From the NCBI GenBank assembly GCA_030427255.1, contig JAUHWY010000028.1, positions 1 to 36,909 of the forward strand: 36,909 nucleotides of DNA, read 5' to 3'. The notes under the pieces were generated by a model that did not search any database, was not told where the DNA came from, and worked only from the letters and a program-made list of their open reading frames with translations. The number at the start of each line of letters is the position of its first letter. The first letter of the stretch is position 1. This DNA is from Bacteroidia bacterium. Lineage in GTDB: Bacteria; Bacteroidota; Bacteroidia; CAIKAF01. Below are positions 1-5,715 of the stretch, one piece after another. The translations under genes were made by a program, and so were the position numbers.

Positions 1-333
1 CATCTGCCGGAATGGCAGGTCCTAAGCCCAGTAAAAGCGTTGCTACAGACTTAGTTTTTCCGCCGGATTGGAGGGGTCAGCATGCTCCGGAATATCCAGA
101 CAATGTACAAATCACCGAACAGGCTTTTTATAACAGTCATTTTCCAGGCTTACATACGGTTAAATTTGTGTTACCATGCTGCTGTTGTGCTTCATGTGCC
201 TTGCATATATCTCAAATCAGTGCTCGATTCTAAAACATAGGTGGCACAAGGTGGCGTAACCCATGCAAGATAAGAAAAACCTTGATTTGTGCATCCCTGG
301 TTGTTTTTTGAACCAACAGATTTAGACGATTGA
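1..333. other. Intergenic, no recognisable gene
   Basis: I see no convincing gene here. A 73-codon open frame (12-233, +) has low-complexity Cys/Ala content and no recognisable motif, and the minus-strand frame at 192-386 runs into the tandem repeat. No tRNA, terminator or promoter of the local consensus is evident. The region may be the eroded edge of an accessory block that continues to the left of the window. Confidence 0.5.
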
Positions 334-690
334 GGCAATGCATTTACCTCGCCTTGGTATATCGGGGTTCCAAAAGTGGATAGCATTTCTAGAATTTAGG
401 TTATGCATTGGTGAATAAGTGGATAGCATATATCTCGCTTTGGTATATGAGGGGTCAAGAAATGGATATCATATACCTTGCATGGGTATATTAGGGGGGT
501 AAAAAGGGAATATCATATACCTCGTTTTGGTATATCGGAGGTCAAAAATTGGATAGCATATCTAGAATTTAGGTAATGCATTGGTGAATAAGTGGATATC
601 ATATATCTCGCATTGGTATTTAATTGGTCAAAAAGTGGATAGCATATCCAGAATTTCTATAATGTTTTGGTCAAAAGAGGTATAGCATAT
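334..690. repeat. 43-bp tandem repeat array, about 8 units
   Basis: Units begin at 334, 377, 420, 463, 507, 550, 593 and 636, with a partial ninth at 679. The period is 43 bp except for one unit of 44. Each unit starts with a variant of TGGATAGCATAT. Two subtypes alternate. Type A (units at 334, 420, 507, 593; 463 is divergent) continues as ACCTCGTTTTGGTATATCGG and ends in GGTCAAAAA. Type B (377 and 550, partly 636) continues as TCTAGAATTTAGGTAATGCA and ends in TTGGTGAATAAG. The period is not a multiple of three and no frame stays open, so the array is non-coding. Its function is unknown; it sits downstream of the rloAB pair. Confidence 0.9.
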
Positions 691-876
691 GTTCCCTAGG
701 ATGGGGTTTGGTTACCAAATGGCGCAAGAAAAGTCCTTTGGAGGCAGCGCATAGGCATATTGTAAGCATTTGGATTTGGTTTTCCGGTTTTGGCAGAACA
801 CTACAAAGGGTCCAATGAGGGTTTCATTATAGACCTTGGAGGCCAAACCATACCTTAGTTGTTGCCGGCCGGCATT
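691..876. other. Intergenic, no recognisable gene
   Basis: This is the stretch between the tandem array and the 3' end of the RloB gene. The minus strand stays open for about 54 codons past the RloB stop codon, down to a TAA at 712-714, but that segment matches no family I recognise. There is no terminator-like hairpin with a T-tract after rloB. Confidence 0.4.
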
Positions 877-1587
877 CTACCCTTCTACATACTTCAAAAG
901 TTCTCTAACCAGTCTGAACACGGTGGTTGATGATTCTTCTCCAGCCGGATTTGTATGGTCAAAGTGATTGTAATTTCTCTCCGCTCTTTCTATGGCAAGT
1001 TCCGCTCTTTTTCTGCTCGTTTTGTCGTCTGTTCCGTCAAGTATTTCAAAAAATTCTTCGTCTATTAATTTGGTGCCCTTGCCATCATAAATTACTTTGA
1101 ATGGCTTAAGGTGTTCGTTTATTTTATCGTTATAGCTGTCTCGGTGCATTCCACCCCCTTGATGGTCGGTAAAGTGCAATATCAGCCAATATTCGAACGA
1201 TTGATTTGAATATGCTACTCCAAAATGGTTGGTCTCCGCTATTTGTATTGCGGCATTGAAATCGTTGTCGTTAAAATCGTCTTTGTCAAATACACACCAA
1301 ACTTGGTCGTAGTTTCCTTCTTGGGCTAAGGCAAGGGCTCTATTTACCAAAGAAACGGTATTAAATCCTTCACCAAGGGTCTTAACTTTTGCAGAAGTAA
1401 TTCTGAATTGATTGAAATAGGAGGGTTCGGTATTTTTACCTTCGCAAACAATAAGAATGAAGGGTTTTTCTGTTAACTCTGGAATTGGTCTTTCCAGGCT
1501 CGGTTCTTTTCTTCGCTGAGCCCTTAACTGTTCAAGATGCTTTTTTTTAGCTGCTTTTTGTTCAGCTTTCTTGTCCTTCATTTTCAT
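877..1587 (-). CDS. rloB: RloB-family TOPRIM-like defence protein
   Basis: This 236-residue protein matches the RloB family (named after restriction-linked ORFs in Campylobacter). Residues 1-35 are a highly charged Lys/Arg/Glu-rich leader. The core begins with a beta-strand ending in an acidic residue (FILIVCEGKNTEPSYF, Glu49), then VWCVFDKDDF (Asp101, Asp103, Asp104) and NQSFEYWLILHF (Glu132). This acidic arrangement resembles TOPRIM nucleases. The gene overlaps the upstream ATPase gene by 26 bp, so the two are almost certainly translated together. By analogy with PARIS and OLD-type pairs, the ATPase may sense a phage trigger and release or activate this nuclease-like partner; that mechanism is inference. 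Met3 (1581) is an alternative start. Confidence 0.82.
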   Translation of the reverse strand: MKMKDKKAEQKAAKKKHLEQLRAQRRKEPSLERPIPELTEKPFILIVCEGKNTEPSYFNQFRITSAKVKTLGEGFNTVSLVNRALALAQEGNYDQVWCVFDKDDFNDNDFNAAIQIAETNHFGVAYSNQSFEYWLILHFTDHQGGGMHRDSYNDKINEHLKPFKVIYDGKGTKLIDEEFFEILDGTDDKTSRKRAELAIERAERNYNHFDHTNPAGEESSTTVFRLVRELLKYVEG

Positions 1588-2896
1588 TTTCCGTCAAGAG
1601 AAAATTTAAGTTATCAAAAAAGCCAAGGAATGGAACTGCACCATATTTTCCCTTGATATAGTTATCTTCAAAGGGCTCTGTTTTTCTTACTTCATCGGAT
1701 TTAAAGTCAGCCAAAGAATAGAGTTTTGCTTCTCCGTATTTATTTTTGTTTGTAAACCAAATTTGGTCTCTTCTGAAAAGCCCTGAACTTAATAAGTTTG
1801 TGTCGTGAGTATTAAAAATCAACTGGGCATTTTTCTTATTAAACTCTTTGGAGTTAAAAAGCAAGGCGATTTTATAAACCAAATTGGGATGAAGTTTTGC
1901 GTCTAATTCATCCACAACCAATGTGTACCCATTTTCAATCACATCAAGAATGGGTCCGGTTAACGCAAAGAATTTTCTAGTTCCGGATGATTCATCATCG
2001 TCTAAAGAAAAACTAATGTTCCCAACAGCTTTTAAGTGCTCATTGTATTTTTTATGCTTTGTCAATACATCATACACATACTCTTGCTTTTCTTCACGAA
2101 CTTCTTTAATGATTTTATCTCTAATTTCTTTGGGCATCCCTATTGGAAGACTATTGATGTCGATTTTTTGCAATTCGATATCTTGAATTCCTAAATCAGC
2201 AGCTTTTAATAATTCTAAAATTTTGATTTTTTGTTCGGGATTTTCTGTTTTCCAAATTGTAAAGCCTTGGTAGCCAAATTCGTTTAACCCGGATAACGTT
2301 TTTAGTTTTTTAAACCAATCCAACACATGGATTGCTGTCTTTTCATTGAATTGAGCGGCTGTGGAAATCAATAAGGCATTGTCTCGAACAAGTCCTTCTT
2401 TAACCACTGTATTTCCTTTGGAGAAACTGCGTTCGTGCGTATGGAAGGTGCTCCCTTCTCTGTAAAAGAGTTCAACTTCTTTTGTTTTTGGTTTATGAAA
2501 AAGCCATTCGGATACAACTCTATCTGTTGTCGCTTCAAAGCCATAGCGATAAAGCACCTTGTTGTGAACAAAAATGATTTCAAATTCAGAGGGTTCGTTT
2601 TCTGTCTGCGTGCTAAGTTTAAATGGCTCAACTTCAATTGTGTCCCCTTTTTGACTTTCCTTTGAGCTATTGATTACGAAATATCGCATAAATGCAAAAG
2701 CATCAAGCAGCTTGCTTTTACCGCTTGCATTTGCGCCATAGATAGCTGCACTTTTAAGAAGTCTCAGACCAAAGTTTTCATTGATTACGATGTTTTCGTG
2801 CTCTCGGGTTTGTTTATCATAGTTAGAAGCAATAAGGCTCAAGGTAGCTTTGTCCTTAAATGTTCTAAAGTTTTTAATTGAAAATTGCAGAAGCAT
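1562..2896 (-). CDS. rloA: RloA-like AAA_15/ABC-type ATPase
   Basis: This 444-residue ATPase is of the SMC/ABC-like AAA_15 type, related to RloA and to the ATPase half of overcoming-lysogenization (OLD) and PARIS systems. The N-terminus MLLQFSIKNFRTF is the usual first strand. Walker A is GANASGKS at 54-61, an ABC-signature-like segment DESSGTRKFF lies at about 301-310, Walker B is LVVDELDAKLHP at 326-337, and the switch histidine is in FNTHDTNLL (His364). The middle (about 80-290) is a less conserved helical insert. It is the first gene of a two-gene minus-strand operon with rloB and has its own promoter at 2927-2960. All nucleotide-binding motifs are intact, so the gene looks functional. 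Its role in phage defence is inferred from family and partner. Confidence 0.85.
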   Translation of the reverse strand: MLLQFSIKNFRTFKDKATLSLIASNYDKQTREHENIVINENFGLRLLKSAAIYGANASGKSKLLDAFAFMRYFVINSSKESQKGDTIEVEPFKLSTQTENEPSEFEIIFVHNKVLYRYGFEATTDRVVSEWLFHKPKTKEVELFYREGSTFHTHERSFSKGNTVVKEGLVRDNALLISTAAQFNEKTAIHVLDWFKKLKTLSGLNEFGYQGFTIWKTENPEQKIKILELLKAADLGIQDIELQKIDINSLPIGMPKEIRDKIIKEVREEKQEYVYDVLTKHKKYNEHLKAVGNISFSLDDDESSGTRKFFALTGPILDVIENGYTLVVDELDAKLHPNLVYKIALLFNSKEFNKKNAQLIFNTHDTNLLSSGLFRRDQIWFTNKNKYGEAKLYSLADFKSDEVRKTEPFEDNYIKGKYGAVPFLGFFDNLNFLLTENENEGQES

Positions 2897-2926
2897 CTTT
2901 CCGTCCGTTTTTGATTGACTTCATAC

Positions 2927-2960
2927 AAAAATAGTCTTTATTCTGACGATTTAATCAAAA
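2927..2960 (-). promoter_or_regulatory. Promoter of rloA-rloB
   Basis: On the minus strand a TATTTTTG box (2934-2927) matches the Bacteroidota -7 consensus TAnnTTTG exactly. A TTTG (2960-2957) lies 22 nt upstream. The box ends 30 nt before the rloA start codon. Confidence 0.6.
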
Positions 2961-3246
2961 TAAACGATTTTTTCGATTCTATTGGTTCGAAAAACCTGTT
3001 TATGTTGTTTTTGGGCGTTTTCCGGTAAGCACTCAATACCGGTAACCGTTTCGCATGCTTCGCAATATTTTAGTGATAGATTAAGCGTACAAAGTAATGT
3101 TAATGATATAGTTAGACGGTATGGTTGATTTCATCTACTTATCAGGTTTTTTGAAGCTCAAATATCCAAATCATCTAGGGGCATAGGGCTTTTTCTAATA
3201 GGGTAGAACCAATTTGTGTGAAATTATTTGTGGTTTTTCTTAAAAG
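2961..3246. other. Intergenic, no recognisable gene
   Basis: This AT-rich spacer lies upstream of the rloA promoter. No open frame of note, RNA gene or terminator is visible. It ends where the GC-rich palindromic element begins. Confidence 0.4.
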
Positions 3247-3438
3247 AATGCCGCAACGGAGCTTACGCGCCCCGGCGGAGGCCAATTAGCCTGCCGAAGT
3301 GGGGTGCAAAGCCGCCGCCCAACTAAGAGCGACCGGAGGAAGCTCCTTAGTTGGGCTTGGCGGCGTAGCTAGCCCACGAGGCAGCTAATGGCCGGAGACG
3401 GATAAGGCGCCCAAATAAACCGAATGAATTTTTTATTT
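3247..3438. repeat. GC-rich palindromic element, family 1, copy 1
   Basis: This element is about 190 bp and nearly identical in its outer parts to 5459-5648. The outer arms pair imperfectly: GCGCCCCGGCGGAGGCCAAT at 3267 against the complement of GGCCGGAGACGGATAAGGCG near 3390. A strong inner hairpin pairs 3311-3327 (GCCGCCGCCCAACTAAG) with 3346-3364. The loop is AGCGACCGGAGGAAGCT, itself closed by AGC/GCT. It lies downstream of abiEii in an otherwise AT-rich spacer and its base composition is clearly higher in GC than the flanks. Positions 3439-3596, up to abiEii, hold nothing I recognise. Confidence 0.85.
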
Positions 3439-3596
3439 CAGTCCCAAAAATTGTTTGAAAGGAAGAAAGGGCTGTCAGGAAGGCATGCGATTGGCTGTTT
3501 ACAGGTGCGTTGAATGAAAATGGTGCATCAAGGGCTTCGGTAAGGTTGATATAAAGCTTACTCCTTGGACTTTTCCTTGAGATTGTAAACCATGTT

Positions 3597-4391
3597 TTAA
3601 GCCATTTTCATGGCTAATGATTGTTCCAACCATTCAAAAGCTTTCTCCTGATTGTATTTCATGTTTGGGTTCAATAGCCCTTGCATGTCTCCCGAAAACT
3701 GTGGTGAGTGTTTCTTTAGCTCCATGTTGCGTAAAAACTCTTTTTGAGTTGGTGGCTTGCCAACCACAAACTTCAAATACTCATTATAACAGTGAATAAT
3801 CCTATCAAAATCGAGTGCTGCATGTTGATGTGCATAGTAGAGATCGAATAGGTCTCTACCTTTTTTGCGCTGGTACAATGCTCTAAGTTTGGTGCCCAGG
3901 AGCTCGTTTAGTTGATAGGTGGTAATGTGGCATTTTCCGGAAAACCATTGGCTGTTTACGGAGAAGGGGAAGGAATTCCAACCAAGTAAATTGAAGTGTT
4001 CCCGGCAATTGATCTCTATTTTTAGCCTTAAACGAATGTCTGGCGAGTATTCCGAGTAGAATCGATACAAAATGGTAGTATTATTTGCCTTTGATTTGAC
4101 TACTCTATCTTCTTCAAAAAAAGTGAGGACTTCACCAATTCGCTTTAAAATAGGTTTGATTGGGCCTTCCTTGATCTGGACCAGATCAATGTCTTCGGAA
4201 TATCTTGGTGCAGGATTCAGGTAGAGTTTATGGAGTGCGGTACCTCCGCGAAATGCGAGGTTTTTGCTTAAAAATTCATTGGAGTAAAGTGCTACTAATG
4301 CCCTACATATGATTAGGTCTTGCTCTACTTGTTCGTTGGTAGTCCAAGGGGCATGGTCTTTCCATTGTGCTATGTAGGGTTTGGCAATCAT
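3597..4391 (-). CDS. abiEii: AbiEii-family nucleotidyltransferase toxin
   Basis: This 264-residue protein is the toxin of an AbiE type IV toxin-antitoxin pair, a nucleotidyltransferase. The signature motifs are all present: FRGGTALHKL (48-56), RYSEDIDLV (63-71, with the Asp67-x-Asp69 metal pair), the third acidic strand KIEIN (124-128), and GTKLRALYQRKKGRDLFDL (166-184). Characterised relatives of AbiEii (for example MenT) transfer nucleotides to tRNA acceptor stems and so halt growth. The start codon overlaps the antitoxin stop by 4 bp (ATGA, 4388-4391), which is the normal antitoxin-first order. No truncation is seen. Phage defence or plasmid-type stabilisation are both possible roles. Confidence 0.88.
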   Translation of the reverse strand: MIAKPYIAQWKDHAPWTTNEQVEQDLIICRALVALYSNEFLSKNLAFRGGTALHKLYLNPAPRYSEDIDLVQIKEGPIKPILKRIGEVLTFFEEDRVVKSKANNTTILYRFYSEYSPDIRLRLKIEINCREHFNLLGWNSFPFSVNSQWFSGKCHITTYQLNELLGTKLRALYQRKKGRDLFDLYYAHQHAALDFDRIIHCYNEYLKFVVGKPPTQKEFLRNMELKKHSPQFSGDMQGLLNPNMKYNQEKAFEWLEQSLAMKMA

Positions 4392-5182
4392 AAATCACTA
4401 TCTAAATCTATATTCATGTCCACTTTCCAATGGTTATTCGCTTTGCCGGGCTTTTGATTTTTATTGGGACTTAACAATACCGGGAAAATTTTCTTTTCAT
4501 TGAAATACTCTTGCAATGCACCTAAAAGGTTTTGGTCCATGTGTAGTTCTTGAAAGATAAGCCCTAGCCTTTGAATGGAGCTTATGTGCGGATACCATTG
4601 AAGCAAGTCTTTGATATCCTCAGTAGTGATAGATTCAGCCAACTCCTCCAAAATGGCAAGAATCCTATTGAGGCCACCCATTTTGGTTTGGTAGTGGATC
4701 AAATCAATGGCTGTTAAAGCCGGAGATGAAATATTGAACAAGCCTGCATCTGACTTTCTTTTTGAAATATTTTTTTCAGGCCAATGGCTCGTTGCTTTAA
4801 TACTCAGGTAGTTATTCCCCTTTTTTATATCCCTTATGTTCGGGATTTTTGTCATAAGGTAACTTTGCTGAACCTGTTGGTGACTTGCTCCATGAAAAGC
4901 TGCTGCTGAGAAAAATGCGATATAGTAGGGTTTTCGGATATAAGCAAAGAGTCTATCTACGTAAAGTTCTAAAGGAAGTCTTTCGTATTGCCTATACCTT
5001 GGAGGTAGAATTAAATAGAATCCCTGTCGGAGCGTTATGACCTCTTTTTTTTTGGAAAGGCGCAGGATTTCATGGCGTAAAGCCACATCGGTTTTAGAAA
5101 CTTCTCGTTTTAATTCCTCCCAGGAAAATGCGTATTGTTCGTACGCCAAACATTTATCCACAAAATCCGCAACGCTCCGCAT
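4388..5182 (-). CDS. abiEi: AbiEi-family antitoxin, winged-helix regulator
   Basis: This 264-residue protein fits the AbiEi antitoxin family. Residues about 15-60 form a winged helix-turn-helix (FSWEELKREVSKTDVALRHE, then KKEVITLRQGFYLILPPRY). The next part (65-110, ELYVDRLFAYIRKPYYIAFF) is the characteristic segment linking DNA binding to the C-terminal toxin-neutralising domain. It is the first gene of a two-gene operon with the AbiEii toxin. AbiEi proteins usually repress their own operon from inverted repeats in the promoter. The upstream region has a near-consensus minus-strand -7 box (TATATTTC, 5205-5198) but no good TTTG partner, and I did not find a clear operator. The overlap with the toxin start implies coupled translation. 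Confidence 0.85.
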   Translation of the reverse strand: MRSVADFVDKCLAYEQYAFSWEELKREVSKTDVALRHEILRLSKKKEVITLRQGFYLILPPRYRQYERLPLELYVDRLFAYIRKPYYIAFFSAAAFHGASHQQVQQSYLMTKIPNIRDIKKGNNYLSIKATSHWPEKNISKRKSDAGLFNISSPALTAIDLIHYQTKMGGLNRILAILEELAESITTEDIKDLLQWYPHISSIQRLGLIFQELHMDQNLLGALQEYFNEKKIFPVLLSPNKNQKPGKANNHWKVDMNIDLDSDL

Positions 5183-5458
5183 TTAGTATTTTTATGCGAA
5201 ATATAGTGAAAAGTGGCGATAGGCGCATGCAATTACTAAAGGGGTCAAGAGGAGAGGACTATTACAAGCTAAGAAACATTTAAAGTTTCCCGAGATAGAG
5301 CTCACCATTAAAATATAGAACTCTTACTTTTTTTAGGTTCAAATTATTGGCAGCAGAGCTTGATTGCTGCCGATTTTTGTATTTGGAATAGGGGAGGGGA
5401 GTTTTGGCACTTTTGGTTTGGGGGGTGGAGAATGGGAAAGGAAACCCAATGGATTCAA
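5183..5458. other. Intergenic, with one small hairpin
   Basis: This is the spacer upstream of abiEi. It contains a hairpin GGCAGC (5349-5354) / GCTGCC (5366-5371) followed by GATTTTT on the plus strand, which looks terminator-like but has no plus-strand gene before it. The several overlapping small open frames here match nothing recognisable. Confidence 0.4.
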
Positions 5459-5648
5459 GAATGCCCAACGGAGCTTAACGCGCCCCGGCGGAGGCCAATT
5501 AGCCTGCCGAAGTGGGGTGCACAGCCTCTGCGGGGGCAAGAGCGACCAAAGGAAGCTCCTTGCCCCTGCATAGCGGCGTAGCTAGCCCACAAGGCAGCTA
5601 ATGGCCGGAGACGGATAAGGCGCCCAAATAAACCCAATGAAATTTCTT
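5459..5648. repeat. GC-rich palindromic element, family 1, copy 2
   Basis: This is the near-identical partner of 3247-3438 in the outer 60-70 bp on each side. The inner hairpin (5528-5540 with 5559-5573) has a different sequence, CTGCGGGGGCAAG paired with CTTGCCCCTGCATAG, yet still folds. The loop AGCGACCAAAGGAAGCT (5541-5557) is conserved. It sits just downstream of ptrB. Confidence 0.85.
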
Positions 5649-5715
5649 ATTCCGGTCAACTAAAGGTCTGCATTCCACATTTTTGAGTCGGGATTTTCAT
5701 TGAAAACACAGCGCA

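What the first reader, a model, noticed from the sequence alone, without database searches (positions are those of the whole stretch)
877..2896. RloA/RloB pair as a likely two-gene anti-phage module
An intact ABC-type ATPase overlaps a small protein with TOPRIM-like acidic motifs. This combination parallels PARIS (AriA/AriB) and OLD-type systems, but here without a restriction-modification locus, the setting in which the rlo genes were first named. It has its own promoter and lies beside a toxin-antitoxin pair, as in defence islands.
Basis: partly seen in the sequence, partly recalled or inferred. Interest (0 to 1): 0.6.

Follow-up and report, generated by a model that had tools for sequence, protein, structure and literature searches.

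The report
AbiL phage-defence pair in a cassette
Two overlapping genes encode an ATPase sensor and a nuclease of the known AbiL anti-phage family, which is ordinary in itself, but close relatives of this pair travel between Bacteroidota as cassettes in integron-like gene arrays that earlier surveys barely report in this phylum.

Summary
Window 877-1587 (RloB, 236 aa) and 1562-2896 (RloA, 444 aa), both on the minus strand, are intact and overlap by 26 nt. RloA is a Rad50/SMC-like ABC ATPase. RloB is a Toprim-type protein: D101, D103 and E132 are invariant in 78 relatives and E49 is nearly so, and its profile aligns in register with OLD Toprim motifs. The genes are under strong purifying selection and the two proteins coevolve. 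Most likely RloA restrains RloB until phage infection, when RloB cuts nucleic acid. Substrate and trigger are unknown. The neighbouring pair is AbiE, but it is not a conserved neighbour and there is no larger defence island. The unexpected part lies beyond the question. The module is a discrete 2.17-kb unit (860-3028). In 13 of 79 relatives, 8 of them among the 13 closest, it is flanked by attC-like hairpins, in arrays with an IntI-like recombinase upstream in the six genomes examined. Such sites occur in 46 of 80 Bacteroidota genomes. The window's copy keeps both cassette edges but no site.

The parts
1562..2896 (-). RloA / AbiLi, SMC-like ABC ATPase, 444 aa
   Evidence: Pfam AAA_21 1.8e-36; PADLOC AbiLi 1.6e-101; AF2 model pLDDT 89.5, VIA Z 20.6 to Rad50 and 17-18 to retron/Septu PtuA
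877..1587 (-). RloB / AbiLii, Toprim-type putative nuclease, 236 aa; E49, E54, D101, D103, E132 as presumed metal ligands
   Evidence: Pfam RloB 1.4e-44; PADLOC AbiLii 1.2e-31; conservation; AF2 pLDDT 94.0; profile alignment to OLD Toprim in register; best VIA match OLD C-terminal region 6nk8, Z 8.4
2926..2933 (-). Bacteroidota-type -7 promoter box TATTTTTG
   Evidence: conserved as TAnnTTTG in 17 of 17 sequences compared
860..3028 (-). Whole mobile unit (cassette): leader with promoter, rloA, rloB, first bases of a former attC-like site. 3028 = TT of the presumed G^TT crossover, 860 = just after the AAC core
   Evidence: DNA similarity (83-87%) to 12 loci in unrelated hosts mostly ends at 860 and at 3007-3028 while flanks are unrelated
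3597..4391 (-). AbiEii nucleotidyltransferase toxin (neighbour, not part of the module)
   Evidence: Pfam AbiEii 2.4e-36, PADLOC AbiEii 9.7e-117
4388..5182 (-). AbiEi antitoxin (neighbour, not part of the module)
   Evidence: Pfam AbiEi_1 7.1e-20, PADLOC AbiEi 4.6e-91
108..440 (-). Weak trace of a decayed tyrosine-recombinase C-terminus of the kind found at attC-like arrays
   Evidence: tblastn 35.4 bits, against at most 24.6 bits in 40 shuffles

Best explanation
rloA-rloB is an AbiL-type abortive-infection module. Shown here: RloA has the fold and all ATP-site motifs of a Rad50/SMC-like ABC ATPase (Walker A, Walker B, an ESSGT stretch that I read as the ABC signature); RloB is a small protein with Toprim metal-ligand motifs (E49, E54, DxD 101/103, E132); the genes overlap, share a conserved promoter, are under purifying selection and coevolve. 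Inferred from relatives: RloA forms a higher-order ATP-bound assembly that keeps RloB inactive; a phage product alters that assembly; RloB then acts as a two-metal nuclease on tRNA or DNA and stops growth of the infected cell. Trigger and substrate are not known. The unit arrived in this genome by horizontal transfer, most likely as a gene cassette of an integron-like array whose recombination site has since been lost.
For: AbiLi and AbiLii are the best PADLOC matches of the two genes. RloA: AF2 pLDDT 89.5, Foldseek 4e-10 to Rad50 and PtuA and 1.1e-7 to full-length Thermus OLD, VIA Z 20.6 to Rad50. RloB: pLDDT 94.0; best VIA match is the OLD C-terminal Toprim region, Z 8.4 over 146 residues; hhalign aligns E49 and D101/D103 with the OLD EGxTE and DxD motifs, P 0.003, against 0.017 for a lumazine-synthase decoy and 0.25 for the reversed profile. 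rloA sits directly upstream of rloB in nearly all relatives; Mantel r 0.94 over 87 pairs, 0 of 999 permutations; dN/dS about 0.06-0.11. Published: L. lactis AbiL is an abortive-infection system; an RloB-type Toprim toxin (node D44) from C. algidicarnis is neutralised by its ATPase in E. coli (PMC10440598); F. nucleatum AbiLii is toxic in E. coli (PMC3985639); the Toprim nuclease AriB of PARIS is held by AriA and cuts tRNA (PMC12409363). Transfer: GC 0.37 against 0.48 for the window beyond 5.7 kb, no RloB in five congeners, 83-87% DNA identity in unrelated hosts.
Against: No experiment on this pair. RloB gave no significant Foldseek hit and its OLD match (Z 8.4) barely exceeds unrelated Rossmann-like folds (Z up to 7.7). 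L. lactis AbiLii was not toxic in E. coli, and F. nucleatum AbiLi did not neutralise its AbiLii (PMC3985639), so simple antitoxin action of RloA is uncertain. No complex was modelled. The window copy has no attC-like site at its edges.
Confidence: 0.8

Rival explanations
1. The pair acts mainly as a toxin-antitoxin module (RloB toxin, RloA antitoxin) that stabilises arrays or plasmids; phage defence is incidental or absent.
For: C. algidicarnis D44/AAA behaves as a toxin-antitoxin pair in E. coli (PMC10440598); relatives lie on plasmids and in cassette arrays, where such modules are common (PMC8618304).
Against: F. nucleatum AbiLi did not neutralise AbiLii (PMC3985639); L. lactis AbiL was isolated for phage resistance; all ATP-site motifs are invariant, which an inert antitoxin would not need.
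Confidence: 0.13
2. RloAB is a two-protein OLD/Rad50-like DNA nuclease that attacks phage or plasmid DNA directly, without abortive infection.
For: OLD Toprim domains cut DNA with two metals and a similar set of acidic ligands (PMC6755086); RloA is closest to Rad50 in fold.
Against: The closest two-gene system, PARIS, cuts tRNA (PMC12409363); AbiL is classed as abortive infection. My data do not decide RNA against DNA.
Confidence: 0.15
3. The unit moves by ordinary homologous exchange or plasmids, and the attC-like sites beside relatives are incidental to this copy.
For: The window copy has no site at either edge; 66 of 79 relatives show none within about 200 bp; one 87% relative is on a plasmid.
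Against: Similarity ends at the crossover base 3028 in six of twelve comparisons and just after the AAC core at 860 in eight of twelve; GTTA lies 131-135 bp before rloA in eight of the eleven closest relatives.
Confidence: 0.3

Closest known systems
AbiL (AbiLi/AbiLii) abortive infection system, first from a Lactococcus lactis plasmid
   Same: Same two genes in the same order; best PADLOC match for both proteins
   Different: Bacteroidota subfamily with its own promoter leader; relatives carried as integron-like cassettes
PARIS (AriA/AriB)
   Same: ABC ATPase plus separate Toprim nuclease, small two-gene module
   Different: RloB does not match DUF4435/AriB models; RloA matches the AriA model only through the shared AAA_21 domain (same span and near-equal score)
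OLD nucleases / Gabija GajA
   Same: ABC ATPase with Toprim domain and similar metal-ligand motifs
   Different: Two separate proteins here; no GajB-type gene at the locus
Septu and retron PtuA
   Same: RloA fold and profile matches
   Different: Partner there is an HNH nuclease (PtuB), not RloB
Integrons and sedentary cassette arrays
   Same: attC-like hairpins with AAC/GTT cores, one- or two-gene cassettes in one orientation, IntI-like recombinase at the head of the array in relatives
   Different: The recombinase has no counterpart of IntI4 residues about 211-244 and scores below the IntI cut-off; it lies on the same strand as the cassettes

Membership tests
AbiL | AbiLi-type ATPase gene directly followed by AbiLii (RloB) gene | tested here: met
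AbiL | Intact ATPase motifs and RloB domain | tested here: met
AbiL | Phage resistance by abortive infection | not testable with these tools
   needs phage challenge
Toprim nuclease | Glu after strand 1, DxD after strand 3, alpha/beta core | tested here: met
   motifs at the ends of predicted strands 43-48 and 95-101, conserved; profile alignment in register; fold match weak
PARIS | AriB (DUF4435) effector | tested here: not met
   RloB has no DUF4435/AriB match up to E 1
OLD / Gabija | ATPase and Toprim in one polypeptide (with GajB for Gabija) | tested here: not met
   two ORFs; no GajB match among the proteins scanned at the locus
Integron cassette (window copy) | Recombination site (attC) at the 3' end | tested here: not met
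   no hairpin or model match at the edges
Integron cassette (window copy) | 5' boundary at the crossover TT | tested here: met
   similarity ends at 3028 in six of twelve comparisons
Integron (relatives) | Array of folded attC sites with AAC/GTT cores | tested here: met
   19 of 20 pairs with compensatory change, 0 of 500 shuffles as high; 32 sites in one array
Integron (relatives) | IntI with its specific additional domain | tested here: not met
   197-223 bits against the TIGR02249 cut-off 265; alignment to IntI4 skips residues about 211-244

The most novel reading that the evidence does not exclude
Bacteroidota widely carry integron-like cassette arrays run by IntI-like recombinases that lack the IntI-specific additional domain and so fall below the usual integron-integrase cut-off, and AbiL is one of the defence cassettes they circulate; the window's copy is a stranded cassette of this kind.
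Probability: 0.6. Interest if true: 0.75.

Novelty: new member of a known kind. Interest (0 to 1): 0.5.

Why it matters
As a module it adds a well-preserved Bacteroidota AbiL, one of the less studied ATPase plus Toprim systems, with clear residues to mutate and a second, distant copy in the same genome. If the cassette reading holds, it explains how such modules spread with their own promoter, and it suggests that integron-like arrays are common in a phylum where a 2022 survey (PMC9024848) reported almost none. Both are directly testable.

Tried and rejected
Sequence search of solved structures with RloB, single or as a profile: no relative. Foldseek for RloB: nothing below E 0.001. Filing as PARIS: no DUF4435/AriB match. 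Filing under Rfam: no family matches the hairpins in three loci. Sigma-70 promoter scan: no more than chance. AbiE as a conserved partner: no relative near the related loci. attC-like site at the window copy: none with default filters, none below E 1.7 with filters off. Integron integrase of TIGR02249 grade: none over the cut-off in 23 genomes, the window's own included. Negative control for the hairpin model: 0 matches in 100 kb of E. coli K-12.

Full report
Observation. Pfam gives AAA_21 (1.8e-36) and RloB (1.4e-44). PADLOC names them AbiLi (1.6e-101) and AbiLii (1.2e-31), the known AbiL abortive-infection family. The neighbours at 3597-5182 are AbiEii and AbiEi. The ten ORFs scanned from there to 21.2 kb are housekeeping-type: prolyl oligopeptidase, citrate synthase, PNPase, sigma-70 factor and others. 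The window begins at a contig end, so the left side is unseen.

Conservation. A scan of GTDB genomes gave 79 related loci, all but a few in Bacteroidota, from 89% identity downward; rloA lies directly upstream of rloB in nearly all. In a 78-sequence RloB alignment Y57, D101, D103, E132 and W134 are invariant; G50, T53 and E54 are kept in 76, E49 in 71. In 71 RloA sequences the Walker A and B residues, G305, H336, Q358 and D377 are invariant; E302 and S303 are kept in 70. dN/dS against nine close relatives is 0.06-0.11 for both genes, and RloA and RloB distances correlate with r 0.94 over 87 pairs, 0 of 999 permutations as high. RloB occurs in 65 of 392 sampled Bacteroidota genomes but in none of five congeners. 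The own genome has a second, distant pair.

Fold. The RloA model (pLDDT 89.5) is a Rad50/SMC-like ABC ATPase head: Foldseek 4e-10 to Rad50 and PtuA, VIA Z 20.6 to Rad50, 18.1 to retron Ec83 PtuA. The RloB model is confident (pLDDT 94.0) with E49 just after strand 43-48 and D101 at the end of strand 95-101. Foldseek finds nothing significant. The best VIA match is the C-terminal Toprim region of an OLD nuclease (6nk8, Z 8.4, 146 residues, 4.1 A), barely above unrelated Rossmann-like folds at 7.7. A profile comparison with OLD Toprim sequences from Bacteroidota aligns E49-G50..T53-E54 with EGxTE and D101/D103 with DxD, P 0.003; decoys gave 0.017 and 0.25. A similar ligand set is used by the B. 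pseudomallei OLD nuclease (E400, E404, D455, D457, E508; PMC6755086); E54 and E132 are my proposed equivalents of E404 and E508. HHpred evidence that RloB is related to OLD Toprim domains was published earlier (PMC10440598). I accept the Toprim assignment with good but not full confidence.

Mechanism. In PARIS the ATPase AriA holds the Toprim nuclease AriB, which is released by phage triggers and cuts tRNA (PMC12409363). An RloB-type Toprim toxin from C. algidicarnis (node D44) is neutralised by its ATPase in E. coli (PMC10440598); F. nucleatum AbiLii is toxic in E. coli, but its AbiLi did not neutralise it and L. lactis AbiLii was not toxic there (PMC3985639). The most likely working is therefore an ATPase sensor that restrains a Toprim nuclease until infection. 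Architecture, motifs and coupling are shown; trigger, substrate and assembly are inferred.

Cassette boundaries. DNA identity of 83-87% with 12 loci in unrelated hosts covers 860-3028 and mostly stops there: the left end is 860 in eight and the right end 3028 in six comparisons, while flanks differ. On the minus strand 3028 begins TTACCGG, the position after G in the GTTA of relatives, which lies 131-135 bp before rloA in eight of the eleven closest; the leader holds a TAnnTTTG promoter box in 17 of 17 sequences. The left end falls just after the AAC of CCGGCAACA. GC content is 0.37 for the pair against 0.48 for the window beyond 5.7 kb.

attC-like sites. In relatives these edges abut imperfect inverted repeats with AAC and GTT cores. 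Fourteen such sites fold into a 20-pair hairpin in which 19 pairs show compensatory changes; 86% of cells pair, against 59% in shuffles and at most 46% when slid. A covariance model (R1) finds them next to rloAB in 13 of 79 loci: L006-L010, L012, L013 and L060 of the 13 closest, and L016, L021, L023, L025, L036. Nearly all lie on the strand of rloAB; most opposite-strand hits mirror the same palindromes. In Christiangramia gaetbulicola a 34-kb array holds 32 sites; the cassettes between them carry one or two ORFs, 32 of 33 on the same strand, rloAB being one cassette. Its other products are mostly unknown, with one further candidate defence pair, PDC-M03. E. coli K-12, 100 kb, gives no match. 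In a sample of 80 Bacteroidota genomes 46 have at least one site at E 1e-4 or better; the own genome has 13 at E 4e-4 or better, none next to the window pair.

Recombinase. In the six genomes where I fetched the best IntI-like gene together with downstream sequence, it lies 0.6-4 kb upstream of attC-like sites and on their strand. These genomes were chosen for a high IntI-like score, so this is not an unbiased sample. The proteins score 197-223 bits with TIGR02249, below its cut-off of 265, and NCBIfam's XerA/integron-integrase model scores near its cut-off. The alignment of one of them to IntI4 breaks at about residues 211-244. The own genome shows a frameshifted C-terminus of this kind about 700 bp before four sites on contig C35, and the window has a weak trace at 108-440.

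What is known. IntegronFinder 2.0 reported only integrase-only elements in Bacteroidetes earlier and one complete integron, in Salinibacter ruber (PMC9024848); reviews list Bacteroidota among phyla with integrons (PMC8618304). I found no paper describing such arrays across this phylum, but the library lacks preprints and most subscription journals, so novelty is not established.

Verdict. The pair is a new member of AbiL, ordinary as a module. The cassette context is the notable part; for the window copy it rests on boundary coincidence, for the relatives on strong structural evidence. No recombination was tested.

Noticed in passing
L203:8703 to L205:5423 (Christiangramia gaetbulicola contig, about 649-685 kb): An array of 32 attC-like sites over 34 kb with one or two ORFs per cassette and an IntI-like tyrosine recombinase 1.3 kb upstream; rloAB is one cassette.
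   Followed up: yes
80 sampled Bacteroidota genomes: attC-like hairpins (model R1) in 46 of 80 genomes, up to 29 per genome, often clustered.
   Followed up: partly
L112:7686-9555 (own genome contig C13): A second, distant RloA-RloB pair in the same genome.
   Followed up: partly
window 3244-3439 and 5457-5652: A GC-rich element of about 200 bp flanking the AbiE pair; 39 matches in the own genome, several next to fragments with stops that match the C-terminus of integron integrases.
   Followed up: partly
window 341-690: A 43-bp tandem repeat (8 copies) just downstream of rloB; related repeats on five further contigs of the genome.
   Followed up: no
window 108-440, minus strand: Weak trace of a decayed tyrosine-recombinase C-terminus with stops.
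   Followed up: partly
L211:7466-12178 (own genome contig C35): Frameshifted recombinase C-terminus followed by four attC-like sites: a decayed array in the window's own genome.
   Followed up: partly
L064:4151-8657 and L031:6641-11598: Two RloA-type genes in one locus: two RloA-RloB pairs in L064, a second RloA-type gene in L031.
   Followed up: no
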